From a virus, in IMG/VR virus record IMGVR_UViG_3300021602_000471, positions 1 through 44,470 of that record: DNA of 44,470 nt; one strand, given 5' to 3'. The notes beneath the pieces were generated by a model that had not been told where the DNA came from, did not search any database, and worked only from the letters and a program-made list of their open reading frames with translations. A program made the translations under genes and the position numbers. Below are positions 24,745 to 39,432 of this stretch, in pieces (position 1 is the first letter of the stretch; every line of letters begins with the position of its first letter).

Positions 24745-26669
24745 AAGAAAAAATGAAAAAAATAAACACCCCCTGGAGTTCAGTTGGATACCTCACATAT
24801 AAACGCACATATTCCCGTCGATTAGACGAACTTGATATCAATAGCCTCACAGAAGAATTTCCTGATACTGTAAACCGTGTGGTAAATGCAGCGCAAACTC
24901 AGTTGAAATGTAACTTCTCCAAAGACGAATCTGAGCGATTACGACGATACCTATTGGAACTAAAGGGCGCCGTCGCCGGTAGATTTTTCTGGCAATTAGG
25001 GACACCTACTGTGGAGCGTCTCGGGCTGTCCAGTCTCCAAAACTGCGCCTTCACTGTTGTTGACAAGCCAGTGGAGCCGTTCACTTGGGCCATGGATCTG
25101 CTGATGTTAGGATCCGGTGTCGGATACAACATTCAAAAAGAGCATGTGGATAAGATCCCAATGGTCAATGCTGACTTCAAATGCCCTACACGTAACAACG
25201 TGAATGACGCAGATTACATCGTTCCTGATAGTCGTGAAGGCTGGGTTGCCCTCATTGGCAAGACACTCAAAGCAGCATTTCTGGCTCATAAATCAGGTAA
25301 ACAAACATTCACTTATTCCACTCAGTTGATCCGTTCAAAGGGCGCCCCCATCAAGGGTTTCGGCGGCACAGCAAGCGGTCCAGAAGATTTAGTATGGGGT
25401 GTTCAGAAGATCGGCATGATTCTGGAACGCCGAGCAGGTCGCAAGGTTCGTCCTATTGACTGTCTGGATATCATGAATATCATCGGCGCCGTCGTTGTGG
25501 CCGGTAACGTCCGTAGATCAGCGCAAATCGCCATTGGCGATGACGATGACGTTGAGTTCTTGTTGGCAAAGCGTTGGGACATGGGTAATATTCCTTCTTG
25601 GCGCGCCATGAGTAACAACTCTGTAGTCTGCAACGACATCAATAATCTGCATGACTATTTCTGGGAAGGGTATGAAGGTAAGGGTGAACCCTACGGCCTG
25701 ATCAATCTGAAACTCTCGCGCAAGATCGGTCGTTTAGGTGAGACACAATATCCCGATGCGGAAGTAATGGGATACAATCCATGTGCCGAACAATCATTGG
25801 CAGACAAAGAAACATGCTGTCTGGCTGAAATCTTTTTGCCGAACATCACCAGTAAGGAAGAGTTTCTTGATGTGGCAACTCTGCTCTATCGTGTGAACAA
25901 ACACTCTCTGGCTCTGCCGTGTCATCTGGATTCCACTGAAACAATCGTTCATAAGAACATGCGTATGGGCATCGGTATTACCGGTGTGCTTGAAGCAACA
26001 GAAGAACAAAAGAGTTGGTTGAGTGAAACATATCCTAAACTCCGTGCATACGACGATGAATACAGCGCCGCTAACGGATTCAACAAGTCAATCAAACTGA
26101 CCACGGTGAAACCAAGTGGAACTCTGTCGTTGTTACCAGGTGTCACCCCTGGTGCCCACCCTGCGTATGCTCGTTTCATGGTCAGACGTATTCGTATCTC
26201 TGCTAATCATTCACTGGTTCAGACATGTCGTGATCATGGTTACCCAGTGGAATATCAACAGAACTTTGATGGATCCATAGATCACAGCACTGTAGTTGTA
26301 TCATTCCCGTTTAGACATTCAGCGAATGCCATCCTGGCAAAAGATGTCACAGCCATTCAACAACTTGAAACCGTTAAGTGGTTGCAAACAGTATGGAGCG
26401 ATAACAGCGTTTCATGCACAATTTATTACCGAAAGGAAGAACTTCCTGAGATTCGTAAGTATCTGAAAAAGAACTACAAGACGAATCACAAGAGTTTATC
26501 TTTCCTGTTACATTCTGAACACGGCTTTAAGCAAGCTCCATTGGAAGAAATTACAGAAGATCAGTATAATGCGCTTGTGGCATCCACAAAATTGATTACA
26601 GAAATTACCGAAGGCAACATTGGATTAGATGATGCTGAATGCTCCACCGGCGCATGCCCAATAAGATAA
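24741..26669 (+). CDS. nrdJ: adenosylcobalamin-dependent (class II) ribonucleotide reductase, monomeric
   Basis: 642 residues. AGRFFWQLGTPTVERLGLSSLQNCAF, MLGSGVGYNIQ, VVAGNVRRSAQIAIGD, NPCAEQSLADKETCCLAEI, VKPSGTLSLLPGVTPGAHPAY and the C-terminal AECSTGACPIR redox cysteine pair are all present, in the pattern of monomeric B12-dependent RTP reductases. It reduces ribonucleotides to deoxyribonucleotides for phage replication without oxygen dependence. Somewhat shorter than the Lactobacillus enzyme. ATGA overlap with the preceding gene; a second ATG four codons in is an alternative start. Requires host cobalamin. Confidence 0.9.
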   Translation: MKEKMKKINTPWSSVGYLTYKRTYSRRLDELDINSLTEEFPDTVNRVVNAAQTQLKCNFSKDESERLRRYLLELKGAVAGRFFWQLGTPTVERLGLSSLQNCAFTVVDKPVEPFTWAMDLLMLGSGVGYNIQKEHVDKIPMVNADFKCPTRNNVNDADYIVPDSREGWVALIGKTLKAAFLAHKSGKQTFTYSTQLIRSKGAPIKGFGGTASGPEDLVWGVQKIGMILERRAGRKVRPIDCLDIMNIIGAVVVAGNVRRSAQIAIGDDDDVEFLLAKRWDMGNIPSWRAMSNNSVVCNDINNLHDYFWEGYEGKGEPYGLINLKLSRKIGRLGETQYPDAEVMGYNPCAEQSLADKETCCLAEIFLPNITSKEEFLDVATLLYRVNKHSLALPCHLDSTETIVHKNMRMGIGITGVLEATEEQKSWLSETYPKLRAYDDEYSAANGFNKSIKLTTVKPSGTLSLLPGVTPGAHPAYARFMVRRIRISANHSLVQTCRDHGYPVEYQQNFDGSIDHSTVVVSFPFRHSANAILAKDVTAIQQLETVKWLQTVWSDNSVSCTIYYRKEELPEIRKYLKKNYKTNHKSLSFLLHSEHGFKQAPLEEITEDQYNALVASTKLITEITEGNIGLDDAECSTGACPIR

Positions 26670-26678
26670 AGGAAAAAT

Positions 26679-26978
26679 ATGAACGTAACATTAAATGAAA
26701 CATACACCTTCAAGGTAACCAGCGGCGAAGAACTCGTTGCTAAAGTGGTAGAGATTGAGGGGCAGTATGTTGTACTGTCTAACCCAGTCTCAATCATTCC
26801 CAGCCAACGCGGTGTAGGTCTCCAACCGAGCATGTTCACTGCCGATCCTGACAGTTTAGTTCGGATAAATACTAATAACGTCACGCTATACGCACCGACG
26901 GAAGATGGTGTCAAGATGAAATACATCGAGGCAATCACCGGAATCAAGGTACCGGACAAGAAACTGATATTGGGTTAA
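26679..26978 (+). CDS. hypothetical protein, small beta-barrel (Sm-like) pattern
   Basis: 99 residues, AAAGGAAA ribosome site. Alternating beta pattern at the start (TYTFKVTSGEELVAKVVEIEG, VVLSNPVSIIPSQRGVG) reminiscent of Sm-like small proteins of T4-like cyanophages, followed by LYAPTEDGVKMKYIEAITG. Its stop overlaps the PAAR gene start (taATG). Function unknown. Confidence 0.6.
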   Translation: MNVTLNETYTFKVTSGEELVAKVVEIEGQYVVLSNPVSIIPSQRGVGLQPSMFTADPDSLVRINTNNVTLYAPTEDGVKMKYIEAITGIKVPDKKLILG

Positions 26979-34461: not shown

Positions 34462-34610
34462 ACAGTGTGAACATAGAGGAAACGAGGTCCTCGCTCTGCA
34501 CTTAAAACATGGAGCAAACGGGCGGATGAGCGGATGAACGTGCGGCGATAACGCATCAGTATAAATGCTTGTAGAGGTATCAACCTCTACTATCCTCTGG
34601 TAACAGAGGG
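34462..34610 (+). ncRNA. structured non-coding segment ahead of the tRNA array
   Basis: No coding frame. Clear hairpins: CGAG-GTC-CTCG within AGAG...CTCT (about 34475-34500), GTAGAGG-TATCAA-CCTCTAC (34571-34590) and CCTCTG-GTAA-CAGAGG with a GNRA loop (34594-34609). It runs directly into the long-stem element at 34611. Compact helices with a GNRA loop suggest a folded RNA, not spacer. Not recognised as RNase P, tmRNA or 6S. Confidence 0.5.
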
Positions 34611-34693
34611 TATTCTAAAACATGCTAGAAGCCTTCGTGACTGTAGGCAAGTGTTGTGTTCAAAGTCGTTCCCGACTAGTGTGTTTTAGAATA
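34611..34693 (+). ncRNA. long-stem RNA element H1
   Basis: A perfect 12-bp stem TATTCTAAAACA / TGTTTTAGAATA (34611-34622 with 34682-34693) encloses about 59 bases. Inside, CTAG pairs with CTAG below the closing stem, and AGTCG-TTCC-CGACT forms a hairpin. Ends three bases before tRNA-Gln. Member of the long-stem family H described under findings. Confidence 0.65.
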
Positions 34694-35127: not shown

Positions 35128-35189
35128 AGGATGCCTGCTGCAAAACACAAAACTTTCACTTTTAATGAAAAAAAATGTGCATCCTGTTA
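35128..35189 (+). ncRNA. armless minihelix E1 with UUU anticodon-like loop
   Basis: Closing stem AGGATGC / GCATCCT (35128-35134 with 35179-35185), then GTTA and a T-run instead of NCCA. Inside, only one hairpin: TTTCA-CTTTTAA-TGAAA (35154-35170), a perfect 5-bp stem with a 7-base loop C-U-UUU-A-A, exactly the form of a Lys anticodon arm. No D- or T-arm; linkers are A-rich. It occupies a tRNA-sized slot between two tRNAs. The array has no ordinary Lys(TTT) tRNA. Confidence 0.7.
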
Positions 35190-35194
35190 TTTTC

Positions 35195-35269
35195 ATCCCC
35201 GTAGGTCAATGGATAGACTTGAAGCCTGCGAAGTTTCAGATCCAGGTTCGATTCCTGGCGGGGGTACCA
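35195..35269 (+). tRNA. tRNA-Arg (GCG)
   Basis: Loop CTGCGAA, acceptor ATCCCCG/CGGGGGT, T-arm CCAGG-TTCGATT-CCTGG, CCA encoded. Confidence 0.88.
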
Positions 35270-35276
35270 AATTTAT

Positions 35277-35350
35277 GTTGTGCTTAGTGTAGTGGTAGCA
35301 AACTTGACTGTGAATCAAGAGGCGAGGGTTCGATTCCCCAGTACAACCCA
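35277..35350 (+). tRNA. tRNA-His (GTG)
   Basis: Loop CTGTGAA; G-1 opposite C73, the hallmark of tRNA-His, with acceptor TTGTGCT/AGTACAA and CCA. Confidence 0.92.
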
Positions 35351-35359
35351 AACAATTTC

Positions 35360-35434
35360 GCCCCTGTAGTTCAATGGCCAGAACACATCTTTGGTAAAGA
35401 TGAGACCGGTGTTCAATTCACCACTGGGGCACCA
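35360..35434 (+). tRNA. tRNA-Thr (GGT)
   Basis: Anticodon arm CATCT-TTGGTAA-AGATG, acceptor GCCCCTG/CTGGGGC with a U6-U67 mismatch, A73-CCA. Confidence 0.88.
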
Positions 35435-35436
35435 TA

Positions 35437-35573
35437 TTTCAGAGTAGACGTTGGAGTCGAGTCGCAAGTAACGGCGAGATGGTATCGCATGTTTGAACGT
35501 GAAAGATGCAAGACCTCCTCCAAACGAGACAAACTATTGAGTCCCCTCAACAAGGATAGGTAGCCCTCTGAAA
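35437..35573 (+). ncRNA. long-stem RNA element H2
   Basis: Closing stem TTTCAGAG / CTCTGAAA (8 bp, 35437-35444 with 35566-35573), second stem TTGGAG / CTCCAA (35451-35456 with 35518-35523), inner hairpins GCGA-GATGGTA-TCGC and TTGAG-TCCC-CTCAA. No tRNA and no ORF inside. Lies between two Thr tRNAs. Confidence 0.55.
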
Positions 35574-35581
35574 AACTATTA

Positions 35582-35657
35582 GCCCGCGAAGTATTAGCTG
35601 GTGGTATGCGACATTCGTAACGTCGAGGATCGGGTTCGAGGCCTGGCGTGGGCACCA
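35582..35657 (+). tRNA. tRNA-Thr (CGT)
   Basis: Loop TTCGTAA, A31-C39 mismatch, acceptor GCCCGCG/CGTGGGC, T-loop TTCGAGG, A73-CCA. Second gene with the same anticodon at 35748. Confidence 0.85.
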
Positions 35658-35664
35658 AATTTAT

Positions 35665-35743
35665 AGCAGAGTAGAGGAGTCCAGTCGTCCTCGCCAGTCT
35701 CATAAGCTGGAGATCGGTGGTGCGAATCCATCTTCTGCAACCA
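35665..35743 (+). tRNA. tRNA-Met or Ile2 (CAT)
   Basis: Anticodon arm CCAGT-CTCATAA-GCTGG, D-stem GAGG/CCTC, T-loop TGCGAAT. A1-A72 mismatch is initiator-like, but the three G-C pairs of initiator anticodon stems are absent. One of three CAT tRNAs. Confidence 0.8.
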
Positions 35744-35747
35744 ATAT

Positions 35748-35822
35748 GCCGTGTTAGTTTAACGAGTAAAATGACGGTCTCGTAAATCGTAGTAGAGGGT
35801 GCAAGTCCTTCACGCGGCTCCA
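35748..35822 (+). tRNA. tRNA-Thr (CGT), second copy type
   Basis: Loop CTCGTAA, acceptor GCCGTGT/ACGCGGC, U73-CCA, T-loop TGCAAGT. Sequence unlike the other CGT tRNA, so not a recent duplicate. Confidence 0.82.
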
Positions 35823-35827
35823 ATAAT

Positions 35828-35903
35828 GCGACTTTAGCTGATGTGGTCATAGCGGGGGCCTGAAGAGTCTCGGAAGTAGGTTCGATTCCTACAGGTTGCA
35901 CCA
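35828..35903 (+). tRNA. tRNA-Phe (GAA)
   Basis: Loop CTGAAGA, acceptor GCGACTT/AGGTTGC, T-arm GTAGG-TTCGATT-CCTAC, A73-CCA. Confidence 0.9.
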
Positions 35904-35910
35904 AATTTAC

Positions 35911-35985
35911 CGAGCTATAGTTCAGCGGTAGAACGCCTTCTTCATACGGAGGATGTCGGGTGTTCAATTCACCCTAGCTCGACCA
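35911..35985 (+). tRNA. tRNA-Met or Ile2 (CAT)
   Basis: Loop TTCATAC, acceptor CGAGCTA/TAGCTCG, D-loop with GG, T-loop TTCAATT, A73-CCA. Which CAT tRNA is initiator, elongator or lysidine-type Ile cannot be settled here. Confidence 0.87.
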
Positions 35986-35990
35986 GTTAT

Positions 35991-36067
35991 GCGTGGTTAG
36001 CTCAGTTTGGTAGAGCAGTTCGTTGCCAACGAACAGGTCGCAGGTTCGAACCCTGTACCCCGCACCA
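35991..36067 (+). tRNA. tRNA-Gly (GCC)
   Basis: Anticodon arm GTTCG-TTGCCAA-CGAAC, typical D- and T-loops. U4-C69 mismatch in the acceptor stem, shared with the Gly(TCC) gene at 37946. Confidence 0.92.
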
Positions 36068-36073
36068 AGTTAT

Positions 36074-36148
36074 GTCTCTATCGGCTAAAGGTAGGCCGGC
36101 AGTCCTTCAAACTGCAAATCGTGAGTTCAATTCTCCGTAGGGACGCCA
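36074..36148 (+). tRNA. tRNA-Glu (TTC) with C33
   Basis: Anticodon arm GCAGT-CCTTCAA-ACTGC; position 33 is C instead of the near-universal U. Acceptor GTCTCTA/TAGGGAC, G73-CCA, T-loop TTCAATT. Confidence 0.85.
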
Positions 36149-36156
36149 AAATATAT

Positions 36157-36230
36157 GGGGTGCAAACATTAAGGTGATGTAACTGGCTCTTACCCAGTAA
36201 AACACGGATCGTTACCGTGGCGCCCCACCA
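36157..36230 (+). tRNA. tRNA-Lys (CTT)
   Basis: Anticodon arm ACTGG-CTCTTAC-CCAGT, acceptor GGGGTGC/GCGCCCC, A73-CCA. T-stem CACGG/CCGTG is perfect but the T-loop is ATCGTTA. Confidence 0.85.
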
Positions 36231-36236
36231 ATTTAT

Positions 36237-36310
36237 ATCAGTATCGTCTAAGAGTAGGACGGTTGCCCCTCAAGCAGCAAATCGGATTGCAATTATCCGT
36301 ACTGATTCCA
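36237..36310 (+). tRNA. tRNA-Glu (CTC) with C33
   Basis: Anticodon arm GTTGC-CCCTCAA-GCAGC; C at position 33. Perfect acceptor ATCAGTA/TACTGAT, T-loop TGCAATT, U73-CCA. Confidence 0.82.
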
Positions 36311-36315
36311 ATTAT

Positions 36316-36391
36316 GTGCGTGTGACCCGAAAGGCTAGGGAACAGATTGCAACCCTGTTATATGTAGGTTCGACTCCTATCATGCACTCCA
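36316..36391 (+). tRNA. tRNA-Cys (GCA)
   Basis: Loop TTGCAAC with A31-C39 mismatch, acceptor GTGCGTG/CATGCAC, U73-CCA, T-loop TTCGACT. Confidence 0.87.
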
Positions 36392-36396
36392 GTTAT

Positions 36397-36471
36397 GCCC
36401 GGTTAGTTCAGTGGAAGAACGTCTGCCCGATTAGCGGAATGTCCAAGGTTCGAATCCTTGACCAGGTACCA
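36397..36471 (+). tRNA. tRNA with anticodon read as GAT (Ile), C33 and U37
   Basis: Cloverleaf with normal D-arm GTTC/GAAC and T-arm CAAGG-TTCGAAT-CCTTG. The anticodon arm TCTGC-CCGATTA-GCGGA gives GAT with C33 and an unusual U37, so the identity is uncertain. C4-A69 mismatch in the acceptor. Confidence 0.65.
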
Positions 36472-36476
36472 GTTTT

Positions 36477-36538
36477 AGGATAGTTACAGCAAACAATAAG
36501 CTAACTTTGGATGTCTAGCGACAAAAGCTATCCTGTTA
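36477..36538 (+). ncRNA. armless minihelix E2 (possible UGG loop)
   Basis: Closing stem AGGATAG / CTATCCT (36477-36483 with 36528-36534), followed by GTTA and T-run. Shares CAGCAAACAATAA with E4. Inner hairpin GCTAAC / GT(C)TAGC with one bulged C leaves the 7-base loop TTTGGAT, in which UGG would be the anticodon-like triplet (Pro). The ASL likeness is weaker than in E1, E3 and E5. Confidence 0.55.
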
Positions 36539-36543
36539 TTTTT

Positions 36544-36599
36544 AGGATGCCTACTGCAATTAACTTTCACTGTAAATGAAACCAATGTGCATCCTGTTA
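36544..36599 (+). ncRNA. armless minihelix E3 with GUA anticodon-like loop
   Basis: Closing stem AGGATGC / GCATCCT (36544-36550 with 36589-36595) identical to E1, then GTTA. Inner hairpin TTTCA-CTGTAAA-TGAAA (36565-36581): perfect 5-bp stem, 7-base loop C-U-GUA-A-A, exactly a Tyr anticodon loop. Ordinary tRNA-Tyr genes exist elsewhere in the array. Confidence 0.7.
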
Positions 36600-36604
36600 T
36601 TTTT

Positions 36605-36699
36605 AGGTTCGGTTCAGCAAACAATAAATCACGGTAATTGCCGTATCATGTGAGTTTGGATTTCTCACGCAAATCAAAAAGTACAAAACGAACCTGTTA
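36605..36699 (+). ncRNA. minihelix E4, longer variant
   Basis: Closing stem AGGTTCG / CGAACCT (36605-36611 with 36689-36695), then GTTA. Two inner hairpins: ACGG-TAATTG-CCGT and GTGAG-TTTGGATTT-CTCAC; the latter repeats the TTTGGAT of E2. Contains the family segment CAGCAAACAATAA. Confidence 0.5.
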
Positions 36700-36725
36700 T
36701 ATTTCTCCGATAGTTGTTACGGTAG

Positions 36726-36733
36726 CATAAATA
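36726..36733 (+). promoter_or_regulatory. late promoter motif CATAAATA
   Basis: Ends four bases before the GIY-YIG gene ATG at 36738; no ribosome site between. Confidence 0.5.
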
Positions 36734-36737
36734 CATT

Positions 36738-37283
36738 ATGTTCTACTATCTATACGAAATTAAAAACCACACCAACGATAAAATATATCGAGGAGTCCAT
36801 AAGACAGAAAATATAGACGACGGGTATATGGGGTCGGGTGCTGCTATTTGTAAAGCAATTCGATTGGAAGGAATAGATAATTTCTCTAAAATAATATTAG
36901 AGACTTTTGAGAATTCCGATGATATGTATGCTAGAGAACGAGAAGTAGTAAATAATGAATTCCTATCAAGACCTGATGTTTACAATATTCAGCCAGGTGG
37001 TGGCGGTGGATGGAACCTCGACAGTGAGCAACAAGCGAAAGCGAAAAATAGAAAAATAGAAATATACGGTGAAGATTATTTCTCGCGTATAGCGTCAATT
37101 CCAAAGTCAGCCTCGCATAAGGCAAATATAGCAGAAGCTATTAATAAGCTAAACGCAACTTATGCAGTCCATCCGAATCTTGGAAAAAAGAGACAGATAG
37201 TCCAGTGTCCGCATTGCGCGAAAACAGGTGCTATTAATGGAATGCAACAATGGCATTTCGACAAATGTAAACACAGGGTATGA
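36738..37283 (+). CDS. GIY-YIG homing endonuclease
   Basis: 181 residues. N-terminal GIY-YIG domain: YYLYEIKNHTNDKIYRGVH (the GIY and YIG elements as YLYEI and IYRG), DDGYMGSGAAICKAI, and the catalytic-type REREVVNNEFL and VYNIQPGGGGGWN. C-terminal CPHCAKTGAINGMQQWHFDKC is a zinc-finger DNA-binding tail, as in phage Seg-type free-standing homing enzymes. It lies between the minihelices E2-E4 and tRNA-Pro, and its last ten bases overlap that tRNA. Confidence 0.85.
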   Translation: MFYYLYEIKNHTNDKIYRGVHKTENIDDGYMGSGAAICKAIRLEGIDNFSKIILETFENSDDMYAREREVVNNEFLSRPDVYNIQPGGGGGWNLDSEQQAKAKNRKIEIYGEDYFSRIASIPKSASHKANIAEAINKLNATYAVHPNLGKKRQIVQCPHCAKTGAINGMQQWHFDKCKHRV

Positions 37284-37347
37284 TGAAATGGTATCATACG
37301 ACCTTCGGAGCGTTGAAGTCCAAGTTCGATTCTTGGTACCCTGACCA
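37274..37347 (+). tRNA. tRNA-Pro (CGG), overlapping the endonuclease gene
   Basis: Perfect acceptor CAGGGTA/TACCCTG with C1-G72 typical of Pro, loop TTCGGAG, T-loop TTCGATT, A73-CCA. A C31-C39 mismatch. The first ten bases are also the last codons and stop of the GIY-YIG gene. Confidence 0.85.
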
Positions 37348-37354
37348 AATTTAT

Positions 37355-37433
37355 TCCGTGAAATCCAAGCAAGGTGCAAGGACTTGACTGTTAATCAATG
37401 ACTAGGTGAGTTCGATCCTCACACACGGAGCCA
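37355..37433 (+). tRNA. tRNA-Asn (GTT)
   Basis: Loop CTGTTAA, U1-A72 and G73 as in bacterial tRNA-Asn, T-arm GTGAG-TTCGATC-CTCAC. Final A of CCA is also the first base of the long-stem element that follows. Confidence 0.88.
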
Positions 37434-37558
37434 TTATTGAAACATATTCATCATTGGTTGTGGGCCTTAGGCGGATAGTATCCGGGACTACACAACGAAG
37501 CAGCAGTAACTAGCGCGATGAAAAGCATACTTTATTTGCGAGAGTGTGTTTCAATAAT
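37433..37558 (+). ncRNA. long-stem RNA element H3
   Basis: Perfect 12-bp closing stem ATTATTGAAACA / TGTTTCAATAAT (37433-37444 with 37547-37558). Inside is a near-linear rod: TTCATC/GATGAA, GTTGTG/CACAAC and CGGAT-AGT-ATCCG. No tRNA features, no ORF. It fits exactly between the CCA of tRNA-Asn and the first base of tRNA-Ala. Confidence 0.7.
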
Positions 37559-37633
37559 GGGGGCAGCAGAGGGCTGCGGATCTGCCTTGCAAGTAGATTG
37601 TCTAGAGGGGTTCGATACCCCCGGCCTCCACCA
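37559..37633 (+). tRNA. tRNA-Ala (TGC), odd D-arm
   Basis: Loop CTTGCAA, acceptor GGGGGC/GCCTCC, T-loop TTCGATA, A73-CCA. The D-arm folds as CAGC-AGAGG-GCTG, shifted from the usual position. A regular Ala(TGC) is at 37775. Confidence 0.75.
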
Positions 37634-37680
37634 AAGAAAATCTCCAAAGGGCCAATGATGACAAACTTAGGGTCCACCAA
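37634..37680 (+). other. tRNA 3'-end remnant or spacer
   Basis: About 45 bases with no cloverleaf, ending in GGGTCCACCA, which looks like an acceptor 3' strand with CCA. Possibly the tail of a deleted tRNA. Confidence 0.3.
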
Positions 37681-37685
37681 ACAAC

Positions 37686-37764
37686 GGGGTGTGACTGTCA
37701 CATATGGGAGACAGCAGTGTGTAACTCACGCTGGTCGGCAGTTCAACTCTGCTACACTCCACCA
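37686..37764 (+). tRNA. tRNA, anticodon uncertain (AAC by position)
   Basis: Acceptor GGGGTGT/ACACTCC, D-stem CTGT/ACAG, T-arm GGCAG-TTCAACT-CTGCT and CCA are clear. Standard numbering gives the loop GTAACTC (AAC, Val), but U37 and A34 are abnormal; alternative pairing gives loop TGTAACT. Confidence 0.6.
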
Positions 37765-37774
37765 AACAATTCAT

Positions 37775-37848
37775 GGGCTGCTAGTATAATGGGATTACAC
37801 TGGCCTTGCAAGTCATTCATCGGGGTTCGATTCCCCGGCGGTCCACCA
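37775..37848 (+). tRNA. tRNA-Ala (TGC)
   Basis: Loop CTTGCAA, acceptor GGGCTGC/GCGGTCC, T-arm CGGGG-TTCGATT-CCCCG, A73-CCA. Confidence 0.88.
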
Positions 37849-37856
37849 AACAATTC

Positions 37857-37939
37857 GGAGACGGAAAGCTGATGGCTTCAGCAGCGAGTCTGTAAAACTC
37901 GCCCTTCGGGGAGTGGATCGAAACCACACGGCTCCACCA
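37857..37939 (+). tRNA. tRNA-Tyr (GTA)
   Basis: Anticodon arm CGAGT-CTGTAAA-ACTCG, class II variable arm with CCCTTCGGGG, T-loop ATCGAAA. One of three Tyr(GTA) genes. Confidence 0.88.
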
Positions 37940-37945
37940 AACAAT

Positions 37946-38020
37946 GCGTGATAAGTGTCATTGGTTACACGACTGGCTTCCACCCAGTAATAGAGATTTC
38001 GATTATCTCATCCCGCACCA
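37946..38020 (+). tRNA. tRNA-Gly (TCC)
   Basis: Anticodon arm ACTGG-CTTCCAC-CCAGT, D-stem GTGT/ACAC, U4-C69 acceptor mismatch as in Gly(GCC), A73-CCA. Confidence 0.88.
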
Positions 38021-38026
38021 AATTAC

Positions 38027-38100
38027 GGCGAGTTCATATAATGGTAATATCGCGGATTGTCTATCCGTAGCCAGGAGTTCGATTCTCCTACTCGTCGCCA
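38027..38100 (+). tRNA. tRNA-Asp (GTC)
   Basis: Loop TTGTCTA, acceptor GGCGAGT/ACTCGTC, G73-CCA, T-arm AGGAG-TTCGATT-CTCCT. Confidence 0.9.
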
Positions 38101-38107
38101 AAATTAT

Positions 38108-38185
38108 GCCCTATTAGACAAATTGGTAAAGTCAGCAGTCTCAAAAGCTGTTATTCTCTCAGTTCGAATCTGAGATAGGGTACCA
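38108..38185 (+). tRNA. tRNA-Leu (CAA) with short variable loop
   Basis: Leu-type D-arm GAC-AAATTGGTAAA-GTC; anticodon arm GCAGT-CTCAAAA-GCTGT; T-arm CTCAG-TTCGAAT-CTGAG. The variable region is only about six bases, not the long arm expected for Leu. Confidence 0.8.
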
Positions 38186-38191
38186 AAATAT

Positions 38192-38265
38192 GCCTCGGTA
38201 GTTTAATGGTAGAACACCGCTCCTACAAAGCGGATACGGGAGTTCAATTCTCCAACGAGGTACCA
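38192..38265 (+). tRNA. tRNA-Val (TAC) with C33
   Basis: Anticodon arm CCGCT-CCTACAA-AGCGG with C at position 33. D-loop AATGGTA, T-loop TTCAATT, A73-CCA. Confidence 0.85.
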
Positions 38266-38270
38266 AAATG

Positions 38271-38444
38271 TGTTCTTAAGGCTGTTCGACGCCAATCGTC
38301 AGCAGTCTGGAATCTGACATATTATTCTAGTGTTGGCGCACGAAAAATGATATGAGGTGTTAACTCATTGGAAGAGTACCGGGTTGTACCGGGAGCAGCG
38401 GGTTCGATTCCCGTACACTGTATCAGAGGACAGCCTTAAGAATA
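38271..38444 (+). ncRNA. long-stem RNA element H4 enclosing a tRNA-like unit
   Basis: Closing stem TGTTCTTAAGGCTGT / ACAGCCTTAAGAATA (15 pairs, one G-T; 38271-38285 with 38430-38444). Inside, a hairpin closed by CGCCAA/TTGGCG, then the degenerate tRNA at 38354. Ends one base before the tRNA at 38446. Confidence 0.65.
38354..38425 (+). pseudogene. degenerate tRNA inside H4, ending TCA
   Basis: D-arm ACTC-ATTGGAA-GAGT and T-arm GCGGG-TTCGATT-CCCGT are textbook, but the anticodon arm is replaced by a tandem GTACCGGG-TT-GTACCGGG, the acceptor pairs poorly and the end is TCA, not CCA. Probably not an ordinary charged tRNA. Confidence 0.5.
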
Positions 38445-38445
38445 T

Positions 38446-38539
38446 GGTCCCTTAGTTTAATGGTAGAACGCCAGACTTATACCCTGGATAAGCTCTAGAT
38501 TGGGGCACAGTGAAGGTTCGATTCCTTCAGGGACTACCA
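38446..38539 (+). tRNA. tRNA with anticodon TAT (Ile) and long variable arm
   Basis: Anticodon arm CCAGA-CTTATAC-CCTGG (A31-C39 mismatch), D-loop AATGGTA, T-arm GAAGG-TTCGATT-CCTTC, A73-CCA. Unlike any normal Ile tRNA it has a variable region of about 24 bases with GCTC/GGGC pairing. Confidence 0.75.
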
Positions 38540-38545
38540 AATTTT

Positions 38546-38620
38546 CTCGGTATAGTTCAATGGATAGATCGGAAGTTTCCTAAACTTTAGATCGAGGTTC
38601 GACTCCTCGTGCCGGGACCA
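38546..38620 (+). tRNA. tRNA-Arg (CCT)
   Basis: Anticodon arm GAAGT-TTCCTAA-ACTTT, acceptor CTCGGTA/TGCCGGG, T-arm CGAGG-TTCGACT-CCTCG, A73-CCA. Confidence 0.88.
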
Positions 38621-38625
38621 GGTTA

Positions 38626-38685
38626 AGGATACGAACAGCAAAAATCAAAAATTCAACTTGTAATTGAAAAATAAGTATCCTGTTA
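38626..38685 (+). ncRNA. armless minihelix E5 with UGU anticodon-like loop
   Basis: Closing stem AGGATAC / GTATCCT (38626-38632 with 38675-38681), then GTTA and T-run. Inner hairpin TTCAA-CTTGTAA-TTGAA (38652-38668): perfect 5-bp stem and loop C-U-UGU-A-A, the form of a Thr(UGU) anticodon arm. Contains the family segment CAGCAAA. Confidence 0.68.
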
Positions 38686-38772: not shown

Positions 38773-38898
38773 GGAGATGTGATGTAATGGTAGCATAGAA
38801 AAGCAAAAAAATTATCCTGACAAGGATAAGTTCTGCAATCACCTAGCTCAACTCTGTAAAAGTTCTTGACCGCGGTTCGATTCCCGGCGTCTCCACCA
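38773..38898 (+). tRNA. tRNA-Tyr (GTA) interrupted by a ~50-base insertion
   Basis: Acceptor GGAGATG/CGTCTCC, D-arm ATGT-AATGGTA-GCAT, anticodon arm CAACT-CTGTAAA-AGTTC and CCA end are recognisable. Between D-arm and anticodon arm lie about 50 extra bases with a perfect hairpin TTATCC-TGACAA-GGATAA. The T-stem is also imperfect. Intron-like insertion or pseudogene. Confidence 0.6.
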
Positions 38899-38976: not shown

Positions 38977-39432
38977 ATGAAAAACTTACTTACTGCCCTA
39001 TCAATCGCCATGTTCAGCATGGCATCCTTCGCTGACGGATCATTTGATCAGATCACCACCGATAATCTTGGTGTGTACAACCCGCTAGGCGGAGCTTGGA
39101 TTTCCAAAGGTAATTCCCAAGGAACATTCAACAACCAGTACACCTTTCATACTGAGCAGGATATGAATTTGGAAACAAACATCCGCTCATCTTGGGGAAC
39201 GATCAACAACTTTGAAAGTTCAGTTGATGGTCATTCGCTTGTTGGCAATCATGGTATCCTCTTTCTGTCAGCCGGTGATCACACATACGATGTGCGTGGT
39301 TACTCAGGTCTGTATGGTTCGGGATATGATGCTGACATTCGCGTGACACCAGTACCGGAACCAGAAACATGGGCAATGATTCTAGCAGGTCTAGGATTGA
39401 TTGGCTTCATGGTTCGTCGCAAAAGCAAATAA
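38977..39432 (+). CDS. PEP-CTERM sorting-signal protein
   Basis: 151 residues. N-terminal signal peptide (MKNLLTALSIAMFSMASFAD) and a textbook C-terminal exosortase signal: VPEPETWAMILAGLGLIGFM then VRRKSK, i.e. Pro-Glu-Pro, a hydrophobic helix and a basic tail. The middle part is a small beta-rich, Gly/Asn-rich domain. In host bacteria such proteins are exported, cut by exosortase and placed on the surface or in extracellular polysaccharide. It stands alone inside the tRNA array, ends five bases before tRNA-Val, and was probably taken from a host. The 78 bases upstream hold a nested hairpin (AGTACA/TGTACT around AGTAGA/TCTACT) and no clear promoter. Confidence 0.9.
   Translation: MKNLLTALSIAMFSMASFADGSFDQITTDNLGVYNPLGGAWISKGNSQGTFNNQYTFHTEQDMNLETNIRSSWGTINNFESSVDGHSLVGNHGILFLSAGDHTYDVRGYSGLYGSGYDADIRVTPVPEPETWAMILAGLGLIGFMVRRKSK

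What the first reader, a model, noticed from the sequence alone, without database searches (positions are those of the whole stretch)
35128..38685. Five armless, tRNA-slot minihelices (E1-E5), three holding perfect anticodon-arm mimics (UUU, GUA, UGU)
Seen: five elements (35128, 36477, 36544, 36605, 38626) share AGG(A/T)TNN...NN(A/T)... with a 7-bp closing stem, an internal GCAA(A/T) segment and the end CCT-GTTAT-T-run. E1, E3 and E5 contain only one internal hairpin, each a perfect 5-bp stem with a 7-base loop C-U-NNN-A-A, the canonical anticodon loop. The triplets are UUU (Lys), GUA (Tyr) and UGU (Thr). E2 and E4 share a TTTGGAT loop (UGG). There are no D- or T-arms and no CCA. Known: phage tRNAs can rescue or dodge host defence nucleases that cut anticodon loops, including Lys(UUU) and Tyr(GUA) targets. 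Inference: E elements could be anticodon-arm decoys for such nucleases, or minimal tRNAs. I know of no described phage family like this.
Basis: partly seen in the sequence, partly recalled or inferred. Interest (0 to 1): 0.88.

Follow-up and report, generated by a model that had tools for sequence, protein, structure and literature searches.

The report
Phage Y-RNA-like partners of Ro-like protein
Five small tRNA-sized hairpin RNAs in a phage tRNA array belong to a large, undescribed family of phage non-coding RNAs that travels with a phage version of the human Ro60 RNA-binding protein and closely resembles the unexplained Class I RNAs of the slime mould Dictyostelium.

Summary
The five elements are real, at the stated places, and far beyond chance. 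A covariance model built without them finds exactly these five in the window. They belong to a widespread phage RNA family (457 distinct copies collected): 7-bp closing stem, 3 nt, conserved C(A)GCAA, variable middle, then G(UUA). The stem covaries strongly. The anticodon-arm look is genuine (112 of 457 carry a perfect 5-bp/7-nt YU-NNN-RA hairpin; about 1 expected) but is only one of several interchangeable middles, so 'minimal tRNA' and 'decoy' do not describe the family.

The family sits beside, and on the strand of, a phage gene for a DUF2828/DUF7788 protein whose predicted fold matches Ro60/TROVE. In two isolate sets not chosen for the RNA, 10 of 11 Ro-like-encoding phages have it and 0 of 11 without Ro-like do. 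I conclude these are probably Y-RNA-like subunits of a phage Ro60-family RNP. Binding is not shown, and the window's own 44-kb record has no Ro-like gene.

Unexpectedly, Rfam's Dictyostelium Class I RNA model (RF01414) picks out these elements (40 of 42 best matches), below its curated threshold; Class I RNAs were reported as unique to dictyostelids.

The parts
35128..35189 (+). E1: element with anticodon-type arm (loop CTTTTAA, triplet UUU), 3' tail GTTA
   Evidence: R1 51.7 bits; RF01414 25.0 bits
36477..36538 (+). E2: element with pseudoknot-type middle (GCTA / TGTC-TAGC-GACA, TTTGGAT)
   Evidence: R1 54.4 bits; RF01414 16.0 bits
36544..36599 (+). E3: element with anticodon-type arm (loop CTGTAAA, triplet GUA)
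   Evidence: R1 38.0 bits; RF01414 20.2 bits
36605..36699 (+). E4: longer element, stem AGGTTCG/CGAACCT, two inner hairpins, TTTGGAT
   Evidence: R1 23.1 bits, E 0.001; perfect stem and motif
38626..38685 (+). E5: element with anticodon-type arm (loop CTTGTAA, triplet UGU)
   Evidence: R1 54.0 bits; RF01414 19.0 bits

Best explanation
The elements are small non-coding RNAs that work as Y-RNA-like subunits of a phage-encoded Ro60-family ribonucleoprotein. The constant end (7-bp closing stem, 3-nt spacer, CAGCAA, unpaired 3' G(UUA)) is the handle bound by the phage Ro-like protein (DUF2828 alpha-helical domain plus DUF7788 vWA/MIDAS domain). The variable middle (anticodon-arm mimic, ATTGG hairpin, small pseudoknot and others) is an exchangeable module that gates the protein's RNA-binding site or tethers it to a client, such as host tRNA-handling enzymes or damaged tRNAs, so one phage can carry several RNAs with different middles. 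Shown here: the RNA family, its covarying stem and conserved motif, its association with the Ro-like gene, and the Ro60 fold of that protein by prediction. Inferred: that these RNAs are made and bind the protein, what the middles do, and that the phage in this window has the protein outside the 44 kb recovered.
For: Co-occurrence: DUF2828 is in 27 of 36 element-bearing IMG/VR records and in 3 of 3 element-bearing isolates, against 681 of 50,697 phage records overall by tblastn. Loci fetched with the protein alone: 46 of 80 carry elements (model R1); all 67 matches are on the Ro gene's strand, 59 within 600 nt of it, median 207 nt. A simple motif test on the same loci: 58 same-strand, 3 opposite-strand, mean 6.6 over all 60 hexamer permutations including the true one. 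Isolates chosen for the protein: R1 hits in 9 of 10. Twelve phages chosen without regard to it: the only one with elements, Synechococcus phage BUCT-ZZ01 (5 copies, two directly upstream of the gene), is the only one with DUF2828. Together 10/11 against 0/11, Fisher p about 2e-5 (my arithmetic). Protein: Pfam DUF7788 and DUF2828 with weak vWA_Ro60; AlphaFold2 model, pLDDT 79, with best PDB matches TROVE/Ro60: 9kop E 4.6e-12, Thermus phage phiLo Ro60, Xenopus Ro 1yvr 1e-7. RNA: 99% of stem pairs kept with changes on both sides in 227 cells against 62 shuffled. Expression: in Listeria phage CKA15 three elements lie just upstream of the Ro-like gene CKA15_055 behind a TTGACA-N17-TATCAT promoter; RNA-seq of that phage found three highly transcribed non-coding regions within 2 kb upstream of that gene and suggested Y RNAs without defining any (PMC12282133).
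Against: No binding data. The window's record has no DUF2828, DUF7788 or TROVE, and two long element-bearing records, 114 kb and 250 kb, also lack them, though none of these is known to be complete. 34 of 80 Ro-like loci show no element within about 4 kb. Rfam's Y RNA and YrlA models do not match the elements. The most transcribed CKA15 region is ROOL RNA, not these elements, so their expression is inferred. RNA-repair ligases, which accompany bacterial Ro RNPs, are not enriched with the elements.
Confidence: 0.73

Rival explanations
1. Anticodon-arm decoys or minimal armless tRNAs: the RNAs present an anticodon loop to host anticodon nucleases or to tRNA enzymes, and the rest is scaffold.
For: 112 of 457 copies have a perfect 5-bp arm with YU-NNN-RA loop against about 1 by shuffling, with triplets UUU, UGU, UCU, GUU, GUA and others; 256 of 457 lie within 100 nt of a same-strand tRNA gene.
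Against: Most copies have no such arm; arm stems do not resemble tRNAs of the same anticodon; conservation is in the closing stem and CAGCAA; copies next to Ro-like genes away from tRNA arrays; no CCA.
Confidence: 0.12
2. True homologues of Dictyostelium Class I RNAs: one RNA family shared by phages and social amoebae, by descent or transfer, with the protein partner still open.
For: RF01414 matches elements over its whole length, up to 33.7 bits; 40 of 42 best matches are elements; the four window matches are E1, E3, E5 and E2. Published Class I features (42-65 nt, end-closing stem of free sequence, motif next to the 5' stem, AAG start, CUGU end, variable middle; PMC7919456) are those of the phage family.
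Against: Best score is below the curated 41.5; the spacer is one nt shorter; such a simple layout could converge; no dictyostelid sequences were available; the known Class I binder Rnp1A is an RRM protein. Not exclusive with the best explanation.
Confidence: 0.3
3. Processing or termination hairpins of the tRNA array without a function as separate RNAs.
For: Position between tRNAs, stem-loop, T-rich downstream sequence in this window.
Against: T-run in only 108 of 457 copies; unpaired CAGCAA at a fixed 3-nt spacing is unexplained; tandem copies beside Ro-like genes.
Confidence: 0.04

Closest known systems
Y RNAs and bacterial Y RNAs (Y_RNA RF00019; YrlA RF02553), partners of Ro60/Rsr
   Same: Small RNA whose ends pair to a stem, variable inner part sometimes mimicking tRNA parts, gene next to that of a Ro60-fold protein.
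   Different: No Rfam Y RNA model match; about 58 nt rather than 80-110; motif CAGCAA instead of the known Ro-binding helix; partner is a DUF2828/DUF7788 protein outside the Pfam TROVE family; often several different RNAs per phage.
Dictyostelium Class I RNAs (RF01414; PMC7919456)
   Same: Length, end-closing stem with free sequence, (UU)ACAGCAA motif just inside the 5' stem, AAG...CUGU ends, variable middle, multicopy.
   Different: Scores below the curated threshold (33.7 at best against 41.5); spacer one nt shorter; phage not amoeba; Ro-like neighbour rather than the RRM protein Rnp1A.
tRNA anticodon arms
   Same: 5-bp stem with YU-NNN-RA 7-nt loop in about a quarter of copies, three of five here.
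   Different: Other arms and CCA missing; stems unrelated to tRNAs of the same anticodon; arm not conserved in the family.
ROOL and GOLLD RNAs of phage tRNA arrays
   Same: Non-coding RNAs of unknown role placed among phage tRNA genes.
   Different: ROOL is about 570 nt; a separate ROOL lies near the elements in Listeria phage CKA15.

Membership tests
Dictyostelium Class I RNA (RF01414) | Covariance-model score at or above the gathering score (41.5 bits) | tested here: not met
   Best 33.7 bits in any record, 25.0 in the window
Dictyostelium Class I RNA (RF01414) | Short stem joining 5' and 3' ends, sequence free, structure kept | tested here: met
   7 bp, 99% paired, strong covariation
Dictyostelium Class I RNA (RF01414) | Conserved motif next to the 5' stem | tested here: inconclusive
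   (U)UACAGCAA shared, but the spacer is 3 nt rather than 4 and flanking letters vary
Dictyostelium Class I RNA (RF01414) | DUSE promoter and dictyostelid origin | tested here: not met
   Phage genomes; Class I reported only from Dictyostelia (PMC7919456). The DUSE itself was not searched for.
Y RNA / YrlA | Match to Rfam Y RNA models | tested here: not met
   No RF00019 or RF02553 match on any of the five at E up to 5
Y RNA / YrlA | Gene next to a Ro60-family gene | tested here: met
   In the family, 59 of 67 copies within 600 nt; not seen in the window's own 44-kb record
Y RNA / YrlA | Bound by the Ro60-family protein | not testable with these tools
   Needs a binding assay or CLIP
Ro60/TROVE (partner protein) | Helical ring plus vWA domain fold of Ro60 | tested here: met
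   Predicted model; Foldseek best matches are TROVE/Ro60, top six with TM 0.50-0.59
Ro60/TROVE (partner protein) | Pfam TROVE (PF05731) match | tested here: not met
   LAh_6 and PhiImVa-1 proteins match DUF7788 and DUF2828 instead; no TROVE match in the genomes of the Ro-like-encoding phages KVP40 and LPCS28
tRNA | Cloverleaf or tRNA model match, CCA end | tested here: not met
   ARAGORN and RF00005 negative on all five
Intrinsic terminator | G+C-rich hairpin directly followed by a U-run | tested here: not met
   GUUA lies between stem and T's; T's just downstream in 108 of 457 copies

The most novel reading that the evidence does not exclude
Phage elements and Dictyostelium Class I RNAs are one ancient RNA kind whose constant end is the recognition site of DUF2828-type Ro-like proteins, so Class I RNAs are the missing Y RNAs of a second, DUF2828 branch of the Ro60 RNP world, and phages use interchangeable middles, including anticodon-arm mimics, to aim that RNP at host translation factors.
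Probability: 0.3. Interest if true: 0.93.

Novelty: new variant of a known kind. Interest (0 to 1): 0.82.

Why it matters
It gives a sequence definition to the RNA side of a Ro60-like protein found in 681 of 50,697 phage records, among them Felixounavirus, KVP40, Listeria P100 and mycobacteriophages. It also gives a testable lead on what Dictyostelium Class I RNAs do, which is unexplained and was reported as restricted to dictyostelids. The number of copies and the swappable middles make it a natural system for learning what Y RNA modules are for.

Tried and rejected
(1) Chance or low-complexity artefact: rejected by the independent model, hexamer permutations and gap controls. (2) Host chromosomal family: the stringent motif gives 13 hits in 257 billion bases of genomes, about the number expected by chance; none lies in a tRNA array (one tRNA in the twelve loci scanned). 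(3) RNA-repair operon model (Ro plus RtcB or T4-type RNA ligase, as in the bacterial rtc operon): RtcB in 3 of 31 element- or Ro-like-bearing records against 0 of 11 controls, T4-type ligase in 10 of 31 against 5 of 11; not supported. (4) Known Rfam families: only RF01414 matches several of the five, below threshold; isolated sub-threshold matches to other families look like chance. (5) Arm stems copying the tRNA of the same anticodon: no (only the five GUU cases lean that way). (6) Canonical TROVE or DUF7788 in the window record: none. (7) BLAST with single elements against isolate phages is too weak to count members but led to the isolates. (8) The bacterial Y RNA papers I wanted were not held.
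Full report
WHAT IS THERE. The window is a 44,470-base IMG/VR virus record with carbohydrate-modification genes and a ribonucleotide reductase followed by a long tRNA array on the + strand. Each has a perfect 7-bp closing stem, three free nucleotides, C(A/T)GCAA, a variable middle, the 3' stem and GTTAT. The anticodon-type arms in E1, E3 and E5 are as described. E2's middle is better read as a pseudoknot (GCTA with TAGC in the loop of a TGTC/GACA hairpin); this is my reading of the sequence, supported by recurrence (about 40 copies), not by probing.

A LARGE FAMILY. In the first set of loci, elements with a full stem numbered 178 against 2 to 8 for altered motifs or tails, with 132 near same-strand tRNAs; these loci were chosen by the pattern, so this is only a rough control. 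In bacterial and archaeal genomes the pattern occurs at about chance level. I collected 457 distinct copies, defined by near-perfect stem (at most one G-U), motif, G at stem position 2 and G after the stem. A covariance model R1 from 50 of these, none from this window, finds exactly E1 to E5.

ISOLATED PHAGES AND THE RO-LIKE GENE. Similarity led to elements in Aeromonas phage LAh_6 and Vibrio phages PhiImVa-1 and EniLVp02. In LAh_6 and PhiImVa-1 the array adjoins a gene whose protein matches Pfam DUF2828 and DUF7788, with weak vWA_Ro60. DUF2828 is then found in 27 of 36 element-bearing IMG/VR records and all three isolates. tblastn finds the protein in 681 of 50,697 phage records, in mycobacteriophages named 'Ro-like RNA binding protein' by depositors. 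Reading phages chosen for the protein, elements with a full stem lie directly beside the gene in Listeria P100 (three), Mycobacterium GuuelaD (two), a Felixounavirus (three), Campylobacter PC14 (two), Enterococcus EfV12 and a Staphylococcus phage (three).

TESTS OF THE LINK. Eighty loci fetched with the protein alone contain 58 distinct same-strand motif elements against 3 on the other strand. Over the 60 permutations of the hexamer the mean is 6.6; the next highest, ACAGCA, is a one-base shift of the motif at 29, and the rest are at most 11. A 3-nt spacer gives 58 against 8 to 26 for other spacers. With R1, 67 matches in 46 of these loci are all on the gene's strand and 59 lie within 600 nt. 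Among isolates chosen by the protein 9 of 10 have R1 matches (the tenth, Lak-A2, has a weak candidate beside the gene). Among 12 phages chosen without regard to the protein, one has elements, Synechococcus phage BUCT-ZZ01, and it alone has DUF2828, with two elements directly upstream. That is 10 of 11 against 0 of 11. Four of these twelve had been weak BLAST hits to an element query, so the choice was not fully blind.

THE PROTEIN. An AlphaFold2 model from 28 phage sequences (pLDDT 79, pTM 0.78) has a helical N-terminal half and a vWA domain with a DxSxS motif. Its best PDB matches are TROVE/Ro60 structures, including Thermus phage phiLo Ro60 and Xenopus Ro, top six TM-scores 0.50 to 0.59. Sequence search alone is suggestive only (E 0.16). 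So it is a Ro60-fold protein by prediction, outside the Pfam TROVE family.

THE RNA. In the 104 R1 matches the closing stem is 99% paired, with 227 cells changed on both sides against 62 in shuffles and a covariation score of 0.93 against 0.20. The alignment was fitted to the model and the model built from full stems, so this leans towards the structure; the motif test compares hexamers and spacers under one rule and so does not. Middles: 5-bp hairpins with 7-nt loops in 223 of 457 (38.8 shuffled), of which 112 have an anticodon-type loop (1.0 shuffled, maximum 3), triplets UUU 37, UGU 25, UCU 12. Related copies inherit the loop, so the counts are not independent events. About 40 copies have the pseudoknot, about 40 ATTGG-type loops, and about half are unclassified.

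DICTYOSTELIUM CLASS I RNA. Rfam's RF01414 matches E1 with 25.0 bits over its whole length. In 36 IMG/VR records it gives matches up to 33.7 bits, and in isolates up to 29.8 and 33.7 bits. Of 42 best matches examined 40 are elements by the independent definition, and the four window matches at E up to 1 are E1, E3, E5 and E2. Kjellin et al. 2021 describe Class I RNAs as 42-65 nt, with a 6-bp stem of free sequence joining the ends, an 11-nt motif next to the 5' stem, AAG start and CUGU end, a variable middle, and no match outside Dictyostelia (PMC7919456). The layout is the same; the score is below the curated threshold. Whether this is homology or convergence cannot be decided here. No dictyostelid genome or proteome was available.

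EXPRESSION. In Listeria phage CKA15 the three elements lie between the Ro-like gene CKA15_055 and CKA15_056, behind a TTGACA-N17-TATCAT promoter. Published RNA-seq of this phage found three highly transcribed non-coding regions within 2 kb upstream of CKA15_055, two of them unannotated and near tRNAs, and suggested Y RNAs; the protein was also found in virions (PMC12282133). The most transcribed region, 26,236-26,727, is ROOL RNA. The element array is probably one of the other two, but the passages I read do not give their coordinates.

HOW IT PROBABLY WORKS. By analogy with Ro60 and Rsr (established knowledge), the constant end should be held by the Ro-like protein and the middle should gate or aim it. 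The anticodon-type middle would suit tRNA-handling enzymes. A link to RNA-repair ligases was tested and not supported.

LIMITS. The window's own record lacks the protein. Of the 36 element-bearing records 9 lack it; most are short, but two are 114 and 250 kb, and none is known to be complete. No interaction was tested.

Noticed in passing
window 38773-38898: tRNA-like ends (GGAGA...TCTCC) around a roughly 60-nt insert with TTATCCTGACAAGGATAA; weak tmRNA match (14.4 bits, E 0.0077).
   Followed up: no
window 38270-38440: A tRNA-like sequence with a 2-base anticodon call sits between long inverted repeats TTCTTAAGGCTGT / ACAGCCTTAAGAA, suggesting a larger structured RNA.
   Followed up: no
window 34610-34691 and 37435-37560: Two other spacers closed by long inverted repeats (TTCTAAAACA/TGTTTTAGAA; TTATTGAAACA/TGTTTCAATAA), not called by Rfam.
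   Followed up: no
L407 4196-4747 (Listeria phage cka15 26195-26746, minus strand): The most abundant unexplained transcript of this phage in PMC12282133 is ROOL RNA (RF03087, 90.1 bits, just under the gathering score).
   Followed up: partly
window 38977-39432: ORF with a PEP-CTERM sorting motif (Pfam E 1.7e-9) inside the phage tRNA array.
   Followed up: no
L013 2777-3297: Permuted tmRNA (RF04321, 82.9 bits) in a phage tRNA array that also carries an element.
   Followed up: no
window 36738-37283: Homing endonuclease gene (PHROG 314, GIY-YIG type by my reading) directly after the E2-E4 tandem.
   Followed up: no
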